Position numbers and translations under genes: made by a program. From assembly GCF_002884495.1 (NCBI RefSeq), contig NZ_KZ614145.1, positions 1,378,423-1,442,422 on the forward strand: 64,000 bases of DNA, in the 5' to 3' direction. Under the pieces are notes generated by a model. The model was not told where the DNA came from and made no database searches. It saw only the letters and a program-made list of their open reading frames with translations. Source of the stretch: Rummeliibacillus pycnus (GTDB lineage: Bacteria > Bacillota > Bacilli > Bacillales_A > Planococcaceae). Shown piece by piece: positions 1,636 through 9,040 of the stretch. Position 1 is the stretch's first letter; each line of letters begins with the position of its first letter.

Positions 1636-2366
1636 TAATCACATTGTTCTTGGCAATATCCCCTCAGCTTGTAATTTATCTGCTGTTTTATTAAGTAGAT
1701 TAACTATAATTCTTTCTACAAGCTGCCTGGCATTAGGTAAAATGGTAGTCCACCAATATTAACCTTCTCGATACTCTTATATTGAGGATGGTTTTGATAG
1801 TCATCTTCTTGGTTCCATGGAATTAAAACATATGCACCAAATGATGTACGATGTACGAGAGTATTTACCATAACTTTCAACGACTATCGCATCTCGGTAT
1901 CTGTGAATTGGGTTAATATCCTCCTGTTGTGGTCCTGGGCGACTTGTTTCATCCTCTCCTAAATCGATTCTGTATATTGCATTGAAAATGTATTGGAATT
2001 TATAATCCTTTCCTATTTTTCCAATACTCAATATAGAATCTGGTTTTTCTGTACAGTTAGAACATCTTTTTTGGACGTACTGTATTGATACTCTAAAATG
2101 ATATCTTCACCGATATTTTTAAATCTCTGTTCAGCCTGTTTCAACTTCTCTAAATTCACAAATAATCCATCGCGATTTACTTGAACAATATTTTGAAAAA
2201 ATTGCTCACACTTATCTTGCAACATTTTAACTAGTTTTAAAAGTTTCCAATATTGATAAAGCTTTGCTATATCTTTAATCGACATTTTATAAATACCTTT
2301 TTGCAATTCTGTACTTTTTGATAGAGTATCATAAATTTGAAATACTTCTCGATAGCCTAAAGCCAT
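1636..2366 (-). pseudogene. Degraded DUF2357-type nuclease, partner of McrB-like ATPase
   Basis: Two overlapping minus-strand reading frames (2028-2366 and 1801-2031) and a further out-of-frame tail (to about 1636) together give one colinear protein. The first has YREVFQIYDTLSKS, then SIKDIAKLYQYWKLLKLV and VNRDGLFVNLEK. The second has KDYKFQYIFNAIYRID and INPIHRYRDAIVVE. The tail has NIGGLPF, ARQLVERIIVNLLNK and a final ILPRTM. From memory this is the C-terminal half of the DUF2357/PD-(D/E)xK proteins encoded next to McrB-like GTPases. At least two frame changes and loss of the N-terminal half make it a pseudogene. The D-(x)n-YR-D pattern of the nuclease core is still visible. Confidence 0.65.
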
Positions 2367-3022: not shown

Positions 3023-4744
3023 ATGTGGAACGAACTAGAAAGGAAAAAGAAGGACAAGTACAAGATATTAATAACGAATTTCGCAAGTTTAAGCGAGGCA
3101 TTCTCGCAGAAAGCCGAAACGGAAGACGGAAAGGAAATTATCGAAACAGTTGCACCAATTGTGAACTCTAAGTTTCAAGAAACGGCGTTTCAACGGGCGT
3201 TTGGAGCACTAGGCGAGGATATTGCGAACACGAGTTACGACGCATCGCTGAAGTTAGACGACAAGCACAAGTATCTCGTTGGTATCAAGTCGTTTGGTAT
3301 TCATTCAGGCGACCAAAAAATCGCTCAGTTCAAGGCGAACAGTGAGGCTGACGGATGGAACGTGACGCTTGCTAAAGTCAAAGAGAATGCGCTTGTTATC
3401 GACTCAAAAGAGCGTGCTGACATTGAGAATGAGCCTTTGTATCGTGATGTGGCACTAAAAATAGCCAAGTTACGCAATGAACGTATAGCGTCCTCTAAGG
3501 AGCAAATAAAAGGGTTCGACGCTAACGACGTGAATGTTGAAGCGGTATATCACGTGCTTATGCCGTCGAAAAAAGGCGAAAAACCGCAAATCAATGTCGG
3601 AGAAACTGATTATTTGCCTATCGACGTAGAAAACTTGACTATACTTGGTTCGACAGGTCTTAAAACTCCTACGAATTTCAAGTTCACGGACGGTCAACAC
3701 AATTACAAGTACACCGCTGCGGACTCGCAACTGCTAATGACTTTTAACAACCGTGAAATCGTGGTCGAAACATGGGATGTTGAGTATGTTGCAGACGCAT
3801 TTTCCTTCTTCGAGAACTTGCACGAAAACTTCGAAATAGGCGCACTGGCCGCAAACGAGCCTGCAATCATCCAAGAAACTGTTTCTTGGATGATTGCAGA
3901 CGAAAACGGCTACGTCGAAGAAAACTCGGGCTTTAACGGGTTCGACGGTGCGACTAAACTGGGAAAGAAAGACGAATACAGAGAAAATCGCATCGCAAAG
4001 TTTGAAAACGAGTACACTGAATATATGTCGAACGAAGACATGTCGTTCATCGTGGCTCATCTAAACGACATTCTGCTTAACGAGTGGCGTTCCATCGAAG
4101 ATAAGCGCCAAATGAAGCGTTTGCGTGCCGAACTTATGGAATTAGTTGAGTCGCTTGGTAACAAGGAAATCGAGAACGCCGTAAGTAAGTTGGTTTATCG
4201 TCCCGCGAGCGAAATGTATATTCCAATACCCGATTCGCGCAAGTTCCACAACGAGCACCCTGATTTCTTCGGGAAAAACATCGGTACATTCATGGATGGT
4301 ACGAGTAAGCTCGCACTCTCTAAAAGTGAACGCTCATTCCGATTAGAATTCTTGCCGAGTGGGGACGCAATCACTGCGTACATCAACCAAGACAACGGAA
4401 AAAGTATTCAGTCCACGCAAAATCAAGGCATACTAGGCGAATGGATACTGCGAGGTGTGTTCCAGTTAGCCAAACGCGAACCGTTGACAGGCAAACGCCT
4501 AGATGAGCTAGGAATTAACGCAATTCGTTTGAAGAAGTTTAGCGACCATGCACGTGGAATAGGGTTAGAATTCACGTGGATAGATGTCTCAAACCCGCCA
4601 AGCGACGCGATTGGTTGGGTTAGTCGATTGTCTCGTGAGAACATCGTAAGCGGCGCATCCTATGATCTAACGCGAAAGGGCACTATTATGCCGTTAGTCG
4701 CAGAGCATGACACACAGAAGTATGATACTTCGGGACACGAATAA
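3023..4744 (+). CDS. Orphan restriction-endonuclease-like protein (homologue of the 7745-9040 protein)
   Basis: 573 residues; ATG after GAGAGGGAC. It shares several blocks, in the same order, with the minus-strand protein at 7745-9040: an Asp...GIK core (SYDASL..LVGIKSF, about residues 90-112), LRNERI, FTDGQHNYKY, SGFNGFDGATK, and a C-terminal domain with PDFFGKN, QDNGKSIQS, ILGEWILRGV and REPLTGKRLDELGI. That C-terminal block resembles the DNA-binding domain of NgoFVII/NgoAVII-type enzymes, so DNA cleavage is inferred. An extra, charged helical insert of about 80 residues (KRQMKRLRAELMELVESL) separates GATK from the C-terminal domain. No methyltransferase adjoins it on its own strand. It uses many GC-ending codons (GAC, AAC, GCG, TCG) unlike all neighbours, a sign of transfer. 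A type IV (modified-DNA) target is possible. Confidence 0.6.
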   Translation: MWNELERKKKDKYKILITNFASLSEAFSQKAETEDGKEIIETVAPIVNSKFQETAFQRAFGALGEDIANTSYDASLKLDDKHKYLVGIKSFGIHSGDQKIAQFKANSEADGWNVTLAKVKENALVIDSKERADIENEPLYRDVALKIAKLRNERIASSKEQIKGFDANDVNVEAVYHVLMPSKKGEKPQINVGETDYLPIDVENLTILGSTGLKTPTNFKFTDGQHNYKYTAADSQLLMTFNNREIVVETWDVEYVADAFSFFENLHENFEIGALAANEPAIIQETVSWMIADENGYVEENSGFNGFDGATKLGKKDEYRENRIAKFENEYTEYMSNEDMSFIVAHLNDILLNEWRSIEDKRQMKRLRAELMELVESLGNKEIENAVSKLVYRPASEMYIPIPDSRKFHNEHPDFFGKNIGTFMDGTSKLALSKSERSFRLEFLPSGDAITAYINQDNGKSIQSTQNQGILGEWILRGVFQLAKREPLTGKRLDELGINAIRLKKFSDHARGIGLEFTWIDVSNPPSDAIGWVSRLSRENIVSGASYDLTRKGTIMPLVAEHDTQKYDTSGHE

Positions 4745-4753
4745 GATTGGAGA

Positions 4754-4864
4754 ATGCCCGAACCTTACGCAGAAAGTGCTTTCGATATGATCTATTGGAA
4801 GAACGGCAATGATTGGGTTTGGGTTTATGAAATGAATGGGAAAGAATGGACATACGTTCTTTAA
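4754..4864 (+). other. In-frame continuation of the orphan endonuclease gene / possible 36-residue peptide
   Basis: After the TAA at 4742-4744 the same frame continues DWRMPEPYAE, FDMIYWKNGNDWVWVYEM and ends TYVL at TAA 4862-4864. It has the same GC-ending codon bias as the upstream gene. An ATG at 4754 would give 36 residues, but the only ribosome-like stretch (GGAGA) touches it. The simplest reading is that the upstream protein once ended here, and that one base change of a Tyr codon to TAA removed about 40 residues. A separate small protein cannot be excluded. Confidence 0.4.
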
Positions 4865-5018
4865 GAACAAAACGACACTCCAGACTATTAATAGAAAATC
4901 AACAACGTCGATCATTGTGTAGTAAAATGTCGGTATGTATCAAATTGGGATGTTACGCTTGGGATTGCCCGCGGTATGTTCCAAGAAGATAAAAAACTGA
5001 ATAACACTTAATCCATAT

Positions 5019-5047
5019 AGAGCACCCTAGGGGTTTGCTCTTTTTTG
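5019..5047 (+). terminator. Intrinsic terminator after the orphan endonuclease
   Basis: The stem AGAGCA-CCC...GGG-TGCTCT is followed by TTTTTT (5041-5046). The stretch 4865-5018 holds a further short open frame with the same codon style (WDVTLGIARGMFQEDKK, ending at TAA near 5011) but no start codon; it looks like the tail of a lost gene. Confidence 0.7.
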
Positions 5048-5176
5048 GTGCGGTTTATCACAAAAAGTACGCTATACAAGTTCTTTAATTTGTATCTTTA
5101 GGTTTGGAGCATTTTCTGTGCCGTTTAAGGTTGCTGATCTACTTATTGATTTATATGCTTTGCATGCTTACTAATT

Positions 5177-5596
5177 TTAAATATTTATATTTAATAATTC
5201 ACTAGGTTGCACATGGCATTTTTTACATATTGTAAATAATCTATCTAATGGTGGCGTTCTATTACCTGCTTCATATTTTGCCCATGTACTCAAAGATACT
5301 CCTACTAAAGTAGCTATTTCTTCTTGACTCAAATTTAAACTTATTCTTAATTGATGTATCCTTTGATATAGTAATTTGTAATTTTGAGATATTTTTATAT
5401 ATGGTCCGGCAATATTGAATACATGATCTATAGACAAATTTAATTCTTTACATATTTTTAAAAATACTCCCAGCTCCGGAATACGTCTATTATTTTCGTA
5501 TGCACTTAGCGTGTTTACTGATATATTTAATTTATTTGCTAAATCTTTTTGAGGCATTGGACCTCTACTGCTTTTAATATGAGTACCTAATTTCAT
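5177..5596 (-). CDS. Tandem helix-turn-helix regulator (Xre/Cro family)
   Basis: 139 residues; ATG at 5594-5596 after AGGTGG. It carries two Cro/CI-type HTH domains in one chain: residues about 8-58 (QKDLANKLNISVNTLSAYEN) and about 80-135 (QEEIATLVGVSLSTWAKYE). Both have the usual Gln/Glu-rich helix 2 and recognition helix 3. There is no ligand or oligomerisation domain, so it should bind DNA as a simple repressor or activator. It lies in the restriction island, downstream of the broken resD-like gene and on the methyltransferase strand. A controller (C-protein) role for the restriction-modification genes is plausible but not shown; most C proteins have only one HTH. Confidence 0.7.
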   Translation of the reverse strand: MKLGTHIKSSRGPMPQKDLANKLNISVNTLSAYENNRRIPELGVFLKICKELNLSIDHVFNIAGPYIKISQNYKLLYQRIHQLRISLNLSQEEIATLVGVSLSTWAKYEAGNRTPPLDRLFTICKKCHVQPSELLNINI

Positions 5597-5626
5597 TTAT
5601 TAACCACCTCAATATGTATTCCTCTA

Positions 5627-5669
5627 TAATAAAAAACCACTTCAATCGTTTACTTTGCAATTGAAGTGT
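5627..5669 (-). terminator. Terminator after the resD-like pseudogene
   Basis: The 9-bp perfect stem CACTTCAAT/ATTGAAGTG (5638-5646 with 5660-5668) is followed on the minus strand by GTTTTTTATT. It separates the resD-like gene from the tandem-HTH gene, which therefore probably has its own promoter in the short gap. Confidence 0.75.
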
Positions 5670-5678
5670 GTTATTTAG

Positions 5679-6398
5679 TCATTGCACAACAAATTTATAA
5701 CCAATTCCCCATACAGTCGTAATCATTTTAGCTGCTTCTGGTGAAACCTTGTTCAATTTTTCTCTTAAACGTTTTACATGTGTATCTACCGTTCGTAAAT
5801 CTCCAAAGAAGTCATAGTGCCAAACTTCCTTTAAAAGATCTTCTCGTTCAAAAACTTTATCAGGTGATTTAGCTAAGAAAATGAGTAAATCATACTCTTT
5901 AGGAGTTAAAGCAATTTCTACATCATCTACTAATACTTTATGAGCATCATAATCAATAGATAGGTGTTCAAAAATAATAATATTTTTAGCGGATACTGAA
6001 GACATCATTCCTACATCTGTTATGGCTCTTCGGAGAATAGATTTAACACGTAAAGTTACTTCACGTGGACTAAATGGTTTAACAATGTAATCATCTGCAC
6101 CTAGTTCAAAGCCTGCTATACGGTCAGATTCATCGCCGTTAGCTGTTAATAAGATAATAGGAGTTATGTTATCACTCTCTCGAATCTCTTTACAAACTAT
6201 TAAACCATCTTTTTCGGGCATCATTATATCCAAAATAATACAGCTATAATTACTTTCTGCAATTTATAGTAATGCCTCGTTCCCATTTTCAGCTTCTTGT
6301 ACTGCATAACCATCTCTTGTTAAATACATATTCAGTAAACGGCGGATTCTTTCTTCGTCATCTACTACTAATATACGTCCAAAATTCTCATTTTCCAA
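5679..6398 (-). pseudogene. resD-like: ResD-like OmpR-family response regulator broken by an in-frame stop
   Basis: Read from TTG 6396-6398 (ten bases after GAGGGGG) the frame gives 239 codons that match a full OmpR-type regulator: VVDDEERIRRLLNMYL, phosphoacceptor in LDIMMPEKDG, TA-x-G and KPFSPREV, then a winged helix with LTPKEYDLL, DLRTVDTHVKRLREKL and VWGIGYKF. Wording is closest to ResD, the respiration/anaerobiosis regulator. Codon 45 is TAA (6264-6266), which splits the receiver domain before the phosphoacceptor, so the gene is probably dead unless read through or restarted at an internal TTG (6231-6233). No sensor kinase or resABC gene is nearby. The ribosome site overlaps the end of the methyltransferase gene. 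Confidence 0.8.
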
Positions 6399-6414
6399 AA
6401 TTCTTATTCCCCCT

Positions 6415-7422
6415 CTATATTAATTGTAATATTAATTGTTCAGAATCTTCATGTTTTGGTGGCTCATAGTTACCATTGGCATTAAGTGCAGTCATTATAT
6501 TTTCTGCAATTCTTCTAACAACAGGTACTACTACAGAGTTTCCAGCTTGTTTGTATAAATGTGACATTGCAAGGTTGGCCGGCAATTTAAATTCTAAAGG
6601 GAATCCCTGTACATTAAAGCACTCTTTAGGTGTTAATTTTCTGATACCATATTTCGTATAAATTAGCGGTACATTGTGACCACCTGTTCCCATATTTGCT
6701 GTTAAAGTTGGGCAAACGCCTGATTTATTTTCACGGACATATTGTCTACGCCATTGATAAATTGTTTCGCTACTAACTATATTCCTTTCCAATTCATCGT
6801 AAAATTTACACTTTTCTGGAGTATAGTAGAATTTATCATCTACTTTAGATTCAAAATCAATAACATCTCTTAATTTTCTTTCTAGTGGAATTGTTGATGG
6901 AAACTCAAATTTCTCGTAATCTTTCTCATTTAGGAAAGCAACAATATAAATTCGTTCCCTGTTTTGTGGTACGTTTCCATACTCACAGCCATTCATTACT
7001 TTATCTCTTACTTTATATCCGTTTGCTTCCAGTGCTCCCTTAATAACACGGAATGTGTTTCCATTATCGTGCCCCACCAAGTTTTTAACATTTTCTAAGA
7101 AAACAACACGTGGTTTTTTCACTTCGACTAACCGTAAAACTTCAAAAAATAGGTTACCACGATCATCTTCAAATCCTTTTCGATAACCTGCAATACTGAA
7201 CGCTTGACAAGGGAATCCTCCTGTTAAAATATCTACATCTGGAAAATCATCTGGTTCAACATTGTGAATATCATCAACACGAAGTTCATGTGAATGATTT
7301 AATTGATAAGTAACAGCAGCATTCTTGTCAAACTCATTTGCCCAAATGACATTAAACCCGGCTAACTCAAACCCAAGTTCAATTCCTCCTACTCCTCCAA
7401 ATAGACCAGCTAAAGTATACAT
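6415..7422 (-). CDS. DNA (cytosine-5) methyltransferase of a type II restriction-modification system
   Basis: 335 residues, the usual length for a bacterial C5 methyltransferase. Motif I is LFGGVGGIELGF (7-18), which binds S-adenosylmethionine. Motif IV is GGFPCQAFS with catalytic Cys72; motif VI is FLENVKNL (ENV 110-112); motif VIII is PQNRERIYIV. Motifs IX and X are KLTPKECFNVQGFP and QAGNSVVVPVV. The target-recognition segment between VIII and IX is short, as in monospecific enzymes. It would protect host DNA from the endonuclease-like protein at 7745-9040 on the same strand. A perfect GC-rich palindrome lies directly before its ribosome site. Modification site cannot be read from sequence. 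Confidence 0.93.
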   Translation of the reverse strand: MYTLAGLFGGVGGIELGFELAGFNVIWANEFDKNAAVTYQLNHSHELRVDDIHNVEPDDFPDVDILTGGFPCQAFSIAGYRKGFEDDRGNLFFEVLRLVEVKKPRVVFLENVKNLVGHDNGNTFRVIKGALEANGYKVRDKVMNGCEYGNVPQNRERIYIVAFLNEKDYEKFEFPSTIPLERKLRDVIDFESKVDDKFYYTPEKCKFYDELERNIVSSETIYQWRRQYVRENKSGVCPTLTANMGTGGHNVPLIYTKYGIRKLTPKECFNVQGFPLEFKLPANLAMSHLYKQAGNSVVVPVVRRIAENIMTALNANGNYEPPKHEDSEQLILQLI

Positions 7423-7440
7423 ATTTTTCCACTCTCTTTT

Positions 7441-7458
7441 TTAGCGGCGTGCCGCTTT
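7441..7458. promoter_or_regulatory. GC-rich palindrome in the methyltransferase leader
   Basis: AGCGGC-GT-GCCGCT (7443-7456) is a perfect 6-bp palindrome flanked by T-runs, 21-34 bases before the methyltransferase ATG. On the methyltransferase strand an A-run, not a T-run, follows, so it is not a terminator for that direction. It contains GCGGC and GCCGC. It may be an operator or a self-methylation control site. The remainder of 7459-7570 is AT-rich without other structure. Confidence 0.5.
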
Positions 7459-7570
7459 TTTTAAATTTATAATTAATAAACTATTAATCTTCATTTTCTA
7501 TATAACCTTAATTTTCATTTTACCAAACTTTTGTTCGTCTGTCTTCTACGATGATTATCTATTATAACAT

Positions 7571-7604
7571 ACAAAAATCCGAAGATATATTTCATCTTCG
7601 GATT
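7571..7604 (-). terminator. Terminator after the second endonuclease-like gene
   Basis: The 11-bp perfect stem AATCCGAAGAT/ATCTTCGGATT has an 8-base loop and, on the minus strand, a following TTTTTG. It separates the endonuclease-like gene from the methyltransferase, so the two are probably transcribed apart. Nothing else is visible in 7605-7744. Confidence 0.8.
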
Positions 7605-7744
7605 CAATCTCTAACAAAATTTTGCATGACATTCTTCATATTTAGGCAATGTTCCATAATAAACAATCTATCAGTATCTTTCCTATTAGCATGGATATCT
7701 AAATAGATATTCCCATATTAAGGTTAAATATTATAAACATTTTC

Positions 7745-9040
7745 TCATAATGTTTCCTCTATAAGTTCTTTTCTTAATTCTGGCATCCGATTTGTAACTT
7801 TTCGAATATCTTCCTGTAGACTAATCTTCCACTTTTCAAACGCATACATTTCAGCTAACTCAATTTTAAAATTTTTATTGTTTATTTTACTTATTTTTAA
7901 CGAATCTACTCCTAGTTCGATTAAACGTTGCATCGTTAATAATTCTCTAGCTTGTAATCCCAGAACATCATGTAAAATCCATTTACCAAGAATATTTTGA
8001 GGATTAGTTTGTAAGCTCTTACCGTTAGTTTGTGTTATAATTGCATCAATTGATCTACCATCTGGTAAATGTAATTTAAATCCTTCGGAAGCATTTCTTT
8101 CTTCTCGATTCAGTGCATTAAATCCGAAGAAATTCGGATATAATCGATGTATCCATACAGGTATTGTTATGTAAGCCTCAAAATTCGGGCGATTTTTATT
8201 CGATCCTTTATTCTTTGATGCTCCATTCCAAGCATTAAATCCAGACTTCTTCTTAACCTGCATCGTTTTTCCATCCGAATAGATTGGTAAATAGATTACG
8301 TCTTTAATTTCATTCTTATTTAAGTAATCTGGTATATGTATCATTTTTATTAATTCAAATGGATCATTGAATTGTACAATTGGTACTTGTGTAATAATTT
8401 TGGCAGAGGAAGCATCAAATTCTTCTAATAAAACACTTTTACTAGCATAAAACTTATAATTTCTTATTCCGTCAGTAAAAGAGTACGTTTTACCATTTGA
8501 ATTCATTAGTTTTATAGAGTCCAGTTGCACTAAATCATAGTCCCTTTCAAAAATATTCATTACATTATCATCTCTAGTAATATAATGGTAAATATCTTTA
8601 TTTGTTTTGTATTGCCTTTTATCTAATAGAATTCTATTATTTCTTAATTGAGATACTTTCTGCACAACTTCTTCTGGACTAGCATTTTCAATAAGAGGTC
8701 TTATTTCTGTAGGTGCTAACTTATTAAATTCTGCAACTTTTTGATAAGTAAAATCCCCATTATGAATCCATGTTTTTAATCCAATACCTATATTTCCTTC
8801 ACCAAAATTTGCAACTGCATCAAAAGCAGAATCTTTTCTCGTCAAGTCTTTTACTCTAAAAACTCTAGAATATAACTTTTCATGATTCCGATAATATAAA
8901 TAAGGTTTTTTTGCATTTTCTCCTTCTTGATTGTCTTTAAATAGACCTGATAACGCACCAAATATTTTCAAAAACTGAATATACTCATTTTGCTCTGATT
9001 CAGAAAACTTATCCCAAATTATACCATTAATAATAACCAC
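7745..9040 (-). CDS. Restriction-endonuclease-like protein paired with the C5 methyltransferase
   Basis: 431 residues. Blocks in order: a conserved core with Asp74 and Lys89 (SAFDAVANFG...GIGLKTW), LRNNRI, FTDGIRNYKF, SGFNAWNGASK, IPVWIHRLYPNFFGFN, LHLPDGRSIDAII, QTNGKSLQTNPQNILGKW and ELLTMQRLIELGVDSLKI. The last three blocks resemble the C-terminal DNA-binding domain of NgoFVII/NgoAVII-type enzymes. The N-terminal core is not phospholipase-D-like and is perhaps a divergent PD-(D/E)xK fold with the acid of the last motif replaced by Gly. Next to a C5 methyltransferase, a type II endonuclease is the likely role. The GTG start at 9038-9040 has only AAAAGG two bases away. It begins inside the ruins of an ABC-transporter gene, so it may be cotranscribed with tetR. 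Confidence 0.65.
   Translation of the reverse strand: MVIINGIIWDKFSESEQNEYIQFLKIFGALSGLFKDNQEGENAKKPYLYYRNHEKLYSRVFRVKDLTRKDSAFDAVANFGEGNIGIGLKTWIHNGDFTYQKVAEFNKLAPTEIRPLIENASPEEVVQKVSQLRNNRILLDKRQYKTNKDIYHYITRDDNVMNIFERDYDLVQLDSIKLMNSNGKTYSFTDGIRNYKFYASKSVLLEEFDASSAKIITQVPIVQFNDPFELIKMIHIPDYLNKNEIKDVIYLPIYSDGKTMQVKKKSGFNAWNGASKNKGSNKNRPNFEAYITIPVWIHRLYPNFFGFNALNREERNASEGFKLHLPDGRSIDAIITQTNGKSLQTNPQNILGKWILHDVLGLQARELLTMQRLIELGVDSLKISKINNKNFKIELAEMYAFEKWKISLQEDIRKVTNRMPELRKELIEETL

What the first reader, a model, noticed from the sequence alone, without database searches (positions are those of the whole stretch)
3023..9040. Two homologous endonuclease-like proteins in one island, one methyltransferase
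The plus-strand 573-residue and minus-strand 431-residue proteins share at least seven blocks in the same order, yet only the second neighbours the C5 methyltransferase. Either one methylase protects against both, or the first targets modified DNA. The N-terminal core (Asp...GIK/GLK) is not phospholipase-D-like, so this may be a poorly described nuclease family.
Basis: partly seen in the sequence, partly recalled or inferred. Interest (0 to 1): 0.7.

Follow-up and report, generated by a model that had tools for sequence, protein, structure and literature searches.

The report
Two DNA cutters sharing one methylase
This bacterium carries two distantly related DNA-cutting restriction enzymes close to a single DNA-marking enzyme that, judging from dozens of relatives, most likely protects the cell from both; it looks like an ordinary restriction system that has picked up a second, recently imported cutter.

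Summary
The 573-aa (R1) and 431-aa (R2) proteins are homologous (BLASTP 8e-20 and 2e-15), and the genome's only C5-methylase hit (M) lies between them. Both have an N-terminal PD-(D/E)XK-like nuclease (invariant E53, D73, K89, but G at the usual acid position) and an R.NgoAVII-type B3 DNA-binding domain; no PLD domain. R1 has a helical insert inside its B3 domain. "R1 targets modified DNA" is not supported: 50 of 51 R1-type genes in fetched loci have the same C5-methylase family in the flank, 46 within 200 bp, as do 33 of 36 R2-type genes (29 within 200 bp). R1 and R2 types form two clades, yet their methylases intermingle, and the methylase recognition core is 83% identical between partners of the two types, the rest 52%. 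The simplest reading: both cut the same unmethylated site and one methylase protects against both. R1 is compositionally foreign, so it probably arrived alone. The double arrangement was seen in one other genome (Butyrivibrio). Target site and activity are untested. The enzymes fall in known, poorly described type II families.

The parts
3023..4744 (+). R1, 573-aa restriction endonuclease (N-terminal nuclease, C-terminal B3 domain)
   Evidence: ORF; PF20731 E 4e-5; PADLOC REase_II E 6.5e-13; AF2 pLDDT 87.7, pTM 0.52; keeps 140 of 141 columns that are at least 95% conserved in 49 relatives
3023..3766 (+). R1 PD-(D/E)XK-like nuclease domain, about residues 1-248; E53, D73, GxK89, K99
   Evidence: VIA Z 8.0 to 3ndh and 7.5 to HinP1I 2fkc; residues invariant
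3863..4588 (+). R1 B3 DNA-binding domain, about residues 281-522
   Evidence: VIA Z 14.0, rmsd 2.5 A over 143 residues to R.NgoAVII B3 4rd5; profile against PDB 4rd5 E 8.4e-5
3968..4195 (+). R1-type helical insert (about residues 316-391) inside the B3 domain, absent from R2 types
   Evidence: Helices 316-334, 337-352, 358-377, 381-391 in the model; gap in R2 types in alignment A7
4628..4741 (+). R1 C-terminal tail (residues 536-573) beyond the end of most relatives, low confidence in the model
   Evidence: pLDDT < 50 at 545-573; alignment A7
7745..9040 (-). R2, 431-aa restriction endonuclease of the same architecture
   Evidence: PADLOC REase_II E 2.7e-117; PF20731 E 1.2e-10; AF2 pLDDT 89.3, pTM 0.75
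8387..9013 (-). R2 PD-(D/E)XK-like nuclease domain, residues about 10-218
   Evidence: VIA Z 8.4 to 3ndh; HinP1I, EcoRV, SwaI and Hjc rows at Z 6-7.3
7844..8317 (-). R2 B3 domain, residues about 242-399
   Evidence: VIA Z 15.1 to 4rd5; profile against PDB E 1.4e-5
6415..7422 (-). M, C5-cytosine DNA methyltransferase (335 aa), the only PF00145 match in the genome
6664..6759 (-). Target-recognition core of M (residues 222-253; assigned by position between the conserved MTase motifs)
   Evidence: Conserved across M of R1- and R2-type systems; matched in 6 phage records
5177..5596 (-). Xre-type regulator with two HTH domains, possible controller of the R-M genes (inferred)
   Evidence: PF01381, 2 stretches, E 1.7e-24
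1809..2264 (-). Decayed PDDEXK_7 nuclease pseudogene (4 in-frame stops); remnant of another nuclease gene beside R1
   Evidence: PF04411 over profile 1-163 with 1 TGA and 3 TAG

Best explanation
R2 (431 aa) and M are a resident type II restriction-modification pair. R1 (573 aa) is a second type II endonuclease of the same superfamily, acquired separately without its own methylase, and tolerated because the resident M methylates the site that R1 cuts. Each enzyme would bind its site with the C-terminal B3 domain and hydrolyse DNA with the N-terminal metal-dependent PD-(D/E)XK-like domain (E53, D73, K89 in R1). M adds a 5-methyl group to a cytosine in that site and blocks both. Shown by computation: homology, domain architecture, partner methylase, intermingling of R types on the methylase tree, conserved recognition core, foreign composition of R1. 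Inferred: nuclease activity, identity of the two target sites, protection by M. A quasi-palindromic site of the GCNGC kind is only a lead (the B3 domain of R.NgoAVII binds GCCGC).
For: R1-R2 homology. Both models: NgoAVII-type B3 (Z 14.0 and 15.1) plus a restriction-enzyme-like nuclease domain. In fetched loci 50 of 51 R1-type and 33 of 36 R2-type genes of at least 340 aa have this methylase family in the flank, 46 and 29 of them within 200 bp. For the one R1-type gene without (L068), M is on the same contig about 5 kb away. R tree, 62 rows: each type one clade, 100% SH-aLRT. M tree, 58 rows: the R-type label needs 8 changes (7 if the two double-R rows are left out), 6 forced by starred branches. 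M recognition core: 83.3% mean identity between partners of different R types (621 pairs) against 51.8% for the rest of the protein. One PF00145 match and no PF01555 match in the genome. R1 third-position GC 50.9% against 25.6 +/- 4.4% for 35 other window ORFs; M 21.4%, R2 19.0%. The double-R, one-M layout recurs in L052.
Against: No activity or specificity was measured. A conserved recognition core could partly reflect structure rather than specificity, and no REBASE sequence of known specificity could be aligned. The acid two residues before the lysine is replaced by glycine, so catalysis by E53/D73/K89 is a proposal. The structural matches of the nuclease domain are modest, and a non-nuclease (human Rep15, Z 6.0 and 6.9) scores among them. 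R2 keeps only 60 of 70 columns that are at least 90% conserved among 36 relatives, so it may have drifted in specificity. Three R2-type genes have no close M in the flank: for L012 a partial M lies at the contig start near R, for L082 M lies on another contig in two pieces, and L090 has only a more distant C5-methylase match (34%) on its contig. The two-R arrangement is rare (1 of 57 related genomes searched plus the window), which also fits a passing accident. The trees are quick ones with SH-aLRT support alone.
Confidence: 0.75

Rival explanations
1. R1 is a modification-dependent (type IV or BisI-like) nuclease that cuts DNA carrying 5-methylcytosine.
For: In the window R1 is not directly adjacent to M. 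The nuclease domains have some structural likeness to BisI-family enzymes (NhoI and Eco15I Z 5.2 for R1, Eco15I 6.4 for R2). In E. faecalis T11 four genes with endonuclease domains, three predicted to recognise m5C, surround a methylase inferred to make Gm5CWGC (PMC4894674, section 7).
Against: 50 of 51 R1-type genes have an m5C methylase of one family in the flank, 46 within 200 bp, which would be suicidal if they cut its product. The BisI-family Z values are no higher than those of HinP1I, EcoRV or SwaI and are generic for the fold. R1-type and R2-type partners share one recognition core.
Confidence: 0.06
2. R1 and R2 have different but nested specificities: M methylates the broader site, and one endonuclease cuts only a subset of it.
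For: R1 has a helical insert inside the B3 fold. R2 has lost 10 of 70 conserved positions. B3-type R.NgoAVII and R.CglI cut at GCCGC, and C5 methylases of the neighbouring specificities GCWGC, GCSGC and GCCGC appear together in one REBASE hit list (PMC10734518, section 9; their kinship to M was not tested).
Against: Residues S302, G303, N305, R393, E397, Q456 and K460 of the B3 domain are nearly invariant in both types, and R types swap partners repeatedly.
Confidence: 0.25
3. R1 is a non-functional newcomer: intact in sequence but unexpressed or inactive, with no role in restriction.
For: Foreign composition, an extra C-terminal tail, and a perfect 19-bp palindrome in the gene not seen in 10 relatives checked, which suggests recent mutation.
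Against: One uninterrupted ORF keeping 140 of 141 near-invariant columns.
Confidence: 0.2

Closest known systems
R.NgoAVII / R.NgoFVII / R.CglI (PLD nuclease + B3 domain, GCSGC or GCCGC)
   Same: C-terminal B3 DNA-binding domain (PF20731; Z 14.0 and 15.1 to 4rd5); partner is a C5 methylase; R2-type relatives are labelled 'NgoFVII family'.
   Different: Nuclease domain is PD-(D/E)XK-like, not PLD; no DEAD-Z1 ATPase gene found beside them, which CglI and NgoAVII need (PMC4267653, passages).
PADLOC REase_II models PDLC03446 and PDLC03479 (type II restriction enzymes)
   Same: R2 matches at 2.7e-117 and 2.6e-57; of 41 aligned members 40 match PDLC03479 and 28 match PDLC03446.
   Different: R1 matches weakly (4.6e-7 and 6.5e-13) and carries the B3 insert.
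EcoRII and UbaLAI (B3 domain plus PD-(D/E)XK nuclease, CCWGG); domain make-up recalled, the UbaLAI paper seen only in a reference list
   Same: The same two kinds of domain in one chain.
   Different: Domain order is reversed (nuclease first here) and the B3 domain is of the NgoAVII kind.
LmoJ2/LmoJ3 (Listeria) and EfaRFI/T11 (Enterococcus) type II systems, GCWGC/GCNGC (passages and sections)
   Same: Type II systems of low-GC Gram-positives, m5C in the cases of EfaRFI and M.LmoJ2I; T11 has one methylase with several endonuclease genes around it.
   Different: Sequence relation to R1, R2 or M could not be tested here; a lead only.
Type II systems with two isoschizomeric endonucleases (SsuDAT1I of S. 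suis); recalled, from no call
   Same: Two endonucleases in one system.
   Different: SsuDAT1I has two methylases and targets GATC; here one methylase serves two endonuclease types.

Membership tests
Type II restriction-modification system | Endonuclease gene paired with a cognate methylase gene | tested here: met
   R1 types 50 of 51 and R2 types 33 of 36 with M in the flank; M 322 bp from R2 in the window
Type II restriction-modification system | Cuts unmethylated sites, spares methylated ones | not testable with these tools
   needs purified enzymes
PD-(D/E)XK nuclease superfamily | Core restriction-endonuclease fold | tested here: met
   Best N-terminal rows for both models are restriction enzymes: 3ndh Z 8.0 and 8.4, 2fkc 7.5 and 7.3, then EcoRV, SwaI, Hjc. 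The tool warns that Z under 8 can be a common arrangement, and human Rep15 (Z 6.0 and 6.9) is among the rows
PD-(D/E)XK nuclease superfamily | Invariant Asp at first strand and Lys of xxK | tested here: met
   D73 and K89 in 89 of 89 rows; E53 in 89 of 89
PD-(D/E)XK nuclease superfamily | Acidic residue two before the Lys (D/ExK) | tested here: not met
   G in 87 of 89, A in 2 of 89; hence 'PD-(D/E)XK-like', with E53 proposed as replacement
NgoFVII/NgoAVII family | C-terminal B3 domain | tested here: met
   PF20731 in 40 of 41 members; 4rd5 Z 14.0 and 15.1
NgoFVII/NgoAVII family | N-terminal PLD nuclease domain | tested here: not met
   No PLD model among the 22 Pfam families that any of 41 members matched at E 0.1; fold is restriction-enzyme-like; R.NgoAVII full chain 4rct aligns by its B3 part only (chain residues 193-345)
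NgoFVII/NgoAVII family | Partner DEAD-Z1 ATPase | tested here: not met
   None of the 5 neighbouring ORFs scanned beside R1, R2 and M is an ATPase; other ORFs up to 14 kb were only read. Of 9 neighbour proteins scanned from 4 relatives, L025 has a Z1 protein and L052 a DEAD helicase without Z1; no other held locus has a BLAST relative of the Z1 protein
BisI family / type IV modification-dependent nucleases | No cognate methylase of the same site alongside | tested here: not met
   m5C methylase in the flank of 50 of 51 R1-type genes
Type IIE enzymes (EcoRII, UbaLAI) | B3 domain as allosteric effector needing two sites | not testable with these tools
   needs kinetics

The most novel reading that the evidence does not exclude
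R1 and R2 are two long-diverged endonuclease lineages (with a third, unrelated PD-(D/E)XK type in a Helicobacter prophage) that are interchangeable modules around one methylase with a near-fixed recognition core. The window and Butyrivibrio NC2002 hold working two-endonuclease, one-methylase systems in which the R1-type B3 insert gives the second enzyme a different activity (site number, effector binding or inhibitor escape) on the same site, so that anti-restriction against one does not disarm the cell.
Probability: 0.25. Interest if true: 0.55.

Novelty: new variant of a known kind. Interest (0 to 1): 0.4.

Why it matters
The data make a clear case of endonuclease swapping around a constant methylase, a step in restriction-modification evolution. 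They also suggest that an endonuclease gene can enter a genome alone when a resident methylase already covers its site. The architecture (PD-(D/E)XK-like nuclease with GxK, then an NgoAVII-type B3 domain) explains why database labels calling such proteins PLD nucleases are misleading and gives residues to mutate. It does not open a new class of defence.

Tried and rejected
Single-protein phmmer of R1 and R2 against the PDB found nothing at E 1; profiles did. NCBIfam gave nothing above cut-off (one hit at E 0.13 for R1, none for R2). PHROGs gave only a weak unknown for R1 (E 0.007) and none for R2. Viral-contig scans gave one R1-type contig and a copy of the phiS11 protein; two others gave nothing. 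The first genome-contig scan picked poor N-terminal patterns and found no relative; a five-sequence alignment found 79 loci (106 relatives confirmed, the best 80 kept, so counts are of the fetched loci only). Searches of 261 genomes of the window's family and 398 of its phylum found no R1-type gene outside the window: the hits were R2-type ORFs and one 27-residue fragment (G551, 59%). The order search covered the same 261 genomes. The genes flanking the island (Nudix, TetR) have no match in the three congeners held, so no empty site could be shown.

The site could not be assigned. The methylase recognition stretch matched only 6 phage records at E 0.01, one of them partially, while 1517 phage records match the full methylase at E 1e-5. 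Of these 6, phiS11 (two records) and Pmp10 have an R2-type gene beside M. A Helicobacter prophage (H58) has instead a PDDEXK_5 protein unrelated to R1 and R2 by BLAST. A Blautia phage (H59) has no relative of R1 or R2 within 4 kb, and the Morganella phage was not examined. The Bacillus multispecific phage methylases that I recall as methylating GCNGC were not among the 6, which gives no support to that site. Paper searches for the family name, B3-type relatives and two-endonuclease systems found no description of this architecture in the open library; most subscription papers are not in it.

One search dropped, before counting, ORFs under 340 aa (R1 types L069 and L070; R2 types L010 and L083) and L018 (phiS11 copy); L014 (same contig as L013) and the window's own copies were not in the set. 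So 51 of 53 R1-type loci and 36 of 39 R2-type loci were counted. L069 and L010 have M beside them; L070, a broken fragment, has none in its locus, and its genome has only other C5 methylases (best 46%). L067 and L068 are split genes that still count because their larger piece exceeds 340 aa. Foldseek alone gave no E below 0.001 for the nuclease domain; the fold call rests on VIA rows and the order of strands and helices in the models.
Full report
What is there. The window's first 14 kb hold R1 (3023-4744, +, 573 aa), a two-HTH Xre regulator (5177-5596, -), a truncated response regulator (5679-6233, -), a C5-cytosine methyltransferase M (6415-7422, -) and R2 (7745-9040, -, 431 aa). R1 and R2 align collinearly: 42% identity over 127 residues at the C-terminus (E 8e-20) and 25% over 329 residues at the N-terminus (E 2e-15). 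M is the only PF00145 match in the 3.85-Mb genome, and PF01555 has none.

Architecture. Pfam finds the NgoFVII C-terminal B3-like domain in R1 (4e-5) and R2 (1.2e-10) and in 40 of 41 aligned members, with no PLD model among the 22 families that any member matched at E 0.1. AlphaFold2 models are confident within domains (mean pLDDT 87.7 for R1 and 89.3 for R2; pTM 0.52 and 0.75, so the domain arrangement in R1 is unsure). [quoted passage not shown] Z 15.1, rmsd 2.5 A over 141 for R2). The best rows for the N-terminal half are restriction enzymes of the PD-(D/E)XK kind: 3ndh (ThaI, name recalled) Z 8.0 and 8.4, HinP1I 7.5 and 7.3, then EcoRV, SwaI and Hjc. These Z values are modest: human Rep15 scores 6.0 and 6.9 among them, and Foldseek alone gave no E below 0.001 for this domain. 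E53, D73, K89 and K99 (R1 numbers) are present in 89 of 89 rows, while the position two before the lysine is G in 87 and A in 2. A GxK variant with E53 as extra acid is therefore proposed, not shown. R1 types carry a helical insert (about residues 316-391) inside the B3 domain that R2 types lack.

Relatives and partners. A five-sequence alignment found 79 loci in the one-per-species genome collection. The R1 types are mostly from streptococci, with Enterococcus, Listeria, Staphylococcus, Lactococcus, Gemella, Lachnospiraceae and some other bacteria. With phage, plasmid and genome-search loci added, 51 R1-type and 36 R2-type genes of at least 340 aa were counted (of 53 and 39 loci). M of the same family was in the flank of 50 and 33, within 200 bp in 46 and 29. 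For the four without, a genome search put M on the same contig for L068 (about 5 kb off) and, cut by the contig start, for L012; on another contig and in two pieces for L082; and found only a more distant C5 methylase (34%) on the contig of L090. This is the layout of type II systems and speaks against R1 being a methylation-dependent cutter.

Same site. On the endonuclease tree (62 rows) the two types are one clade each with 100% SH-aLRT support. On the methylase tree (58 rows) the same labels need 8 changes (7 without the two double-R rows), at least 6 forced by well-supported branches; for example the methylase of phage phiS11 (R2 type) groups with those of L013 and L067 (R1 types). Among 52 non-redundant methylases the 32-residue recognition core is 83.3% identical between partners of different R types (621 pairs), 84.3% within R2 partners and 88.7% within R1 partners, against 51.8%, 51.7% and 60.0% for the rest of the protein. 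Endonuclease types have thus been exchanged around a methylase whose recognition core hardly changes; a Helicobacter prophage even pairs the core with an unrelated PDDEXK_5 protein. The most economical reading is one shared site, hence one methylase protecting against both. The core could be conserved partly for structure, so this is strong inference, not proof.

How it arose. R1 is compositionally foreign: third-position GC 50.9%, against 25.6 +/- 4.4% (maximum 33.5%) for 35 other ORFs in the window, with M at 21.4% and R2 at 19.0%. M and R2 look resident; R1 most likely arrived alone later. It keeps 140 of 141 columns that are at least 95% conserved in 49 relatives, so it is probably still functional. 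M's nearest relative is L004, from a genome of the same family, whose partner is an R2 type. Of 30 genomes searched (through 30 of the 52 genome loci with an R1 type) only one also has an R2 type, judged by ORF length and score: L052, Butyrivibrio NC2002, where the two genes are adjacent. Of 27 genomes reached through the R2-type loci L071-L097, 26 had hits, all in ORFs too short to be R1 types, and one had none. The double state is rare and was seen twice here.

What is known. R2-type relatives are labelled 'NgoFVII family' or 'restriction endonuclease PLD domain-containing protein', and PADLOC has type II models for the family. NgoAVII and CglI share the B3 domain but have PLD nucleases and need an ATPase; they cut near GCCGC (PMC4267653, abstract and passages). 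E. faecalis T11 is reported to have one methylase, inferred to make Gm5CWGC, amid four genes with endonuclease domains, one resembling R.EfaRFI (PMC4894674, passages and section 7), and Listeria LmoJ2 and LmoJ3 target GCWGC and GCNGC (PMC10059834, passages). Whether these are the same families could not be tested, so a GCNGC-like target is a lead only. My paper searches found no description of this architecture or of a two-endonuclease, one-methylase case of this kind; the library lacks most subscription papers.

Verdict. The finding is a variant of ordinary type II restriction-modification with a good evolutionary story.

Noticed in passing
window 3861-3899: A perfect 19-bp inverted repeat with a 1-nt loop inside the R1 coding sequence (linker before the B3 domain), the longest perfect hairpin in the 64 kb (arm at least 13, loop up to 8). 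In 10 R1-type relatives checked the longest perfect arm anywhere in the gene was 9 bp, in one. Possibly a template-switch mutation.
   Followed up: partly
window 1809-2264 (-): Decayed PDDEXK_7 nuclease gene with four in-frame stops next to R1. If it was part of an m5C-reading system, its loss would fit the reported mutual exclusion of type IV and m5C type II systems in Dolosigranulum (PMC8547433, passages).
   Followed up: partly
L052:153-7137: Butyrivibrio NC2002: M on the other strand, then Vsr, an AspBHI-like gene (RE_AspBHI_N plus Mrr_cat), an HTH gene, an R2 type and an R1 type in a row.
   Followed up: partly
L025:8036-11598: Staphylococcus pragensis: R1 type and M followed by a Z1-domain protein and an ORF that looks like a GHKL ATPase (by eye), reminiscent of paraMORC-type restriction clusters (recalled).
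   Followed up: no
L100:3428-5235: Helicobacter pullorum prophage: the same methylase core beside a 293-aa PDDEXK_5 protein (E 2.3e-7) unrelated to R1 and R2 by BLAST, a possible third endonuclease type on this methylase.
   Followed up: partly
window 5679-6233 (-): Response regulator truncated at its N-terminus (receiver profile from position 48 on) between M and the Xre regulator; probably a remnant.
   Followed up: no
L013:6570-7352, L052:7279-8070: Two different unassigned proteins of about 260 aa directly after R1-type genes, without Pfam match; L052's has a homologue in L055 (38% over 239 aa), L013's a weak one in L010.
   Followed up: no
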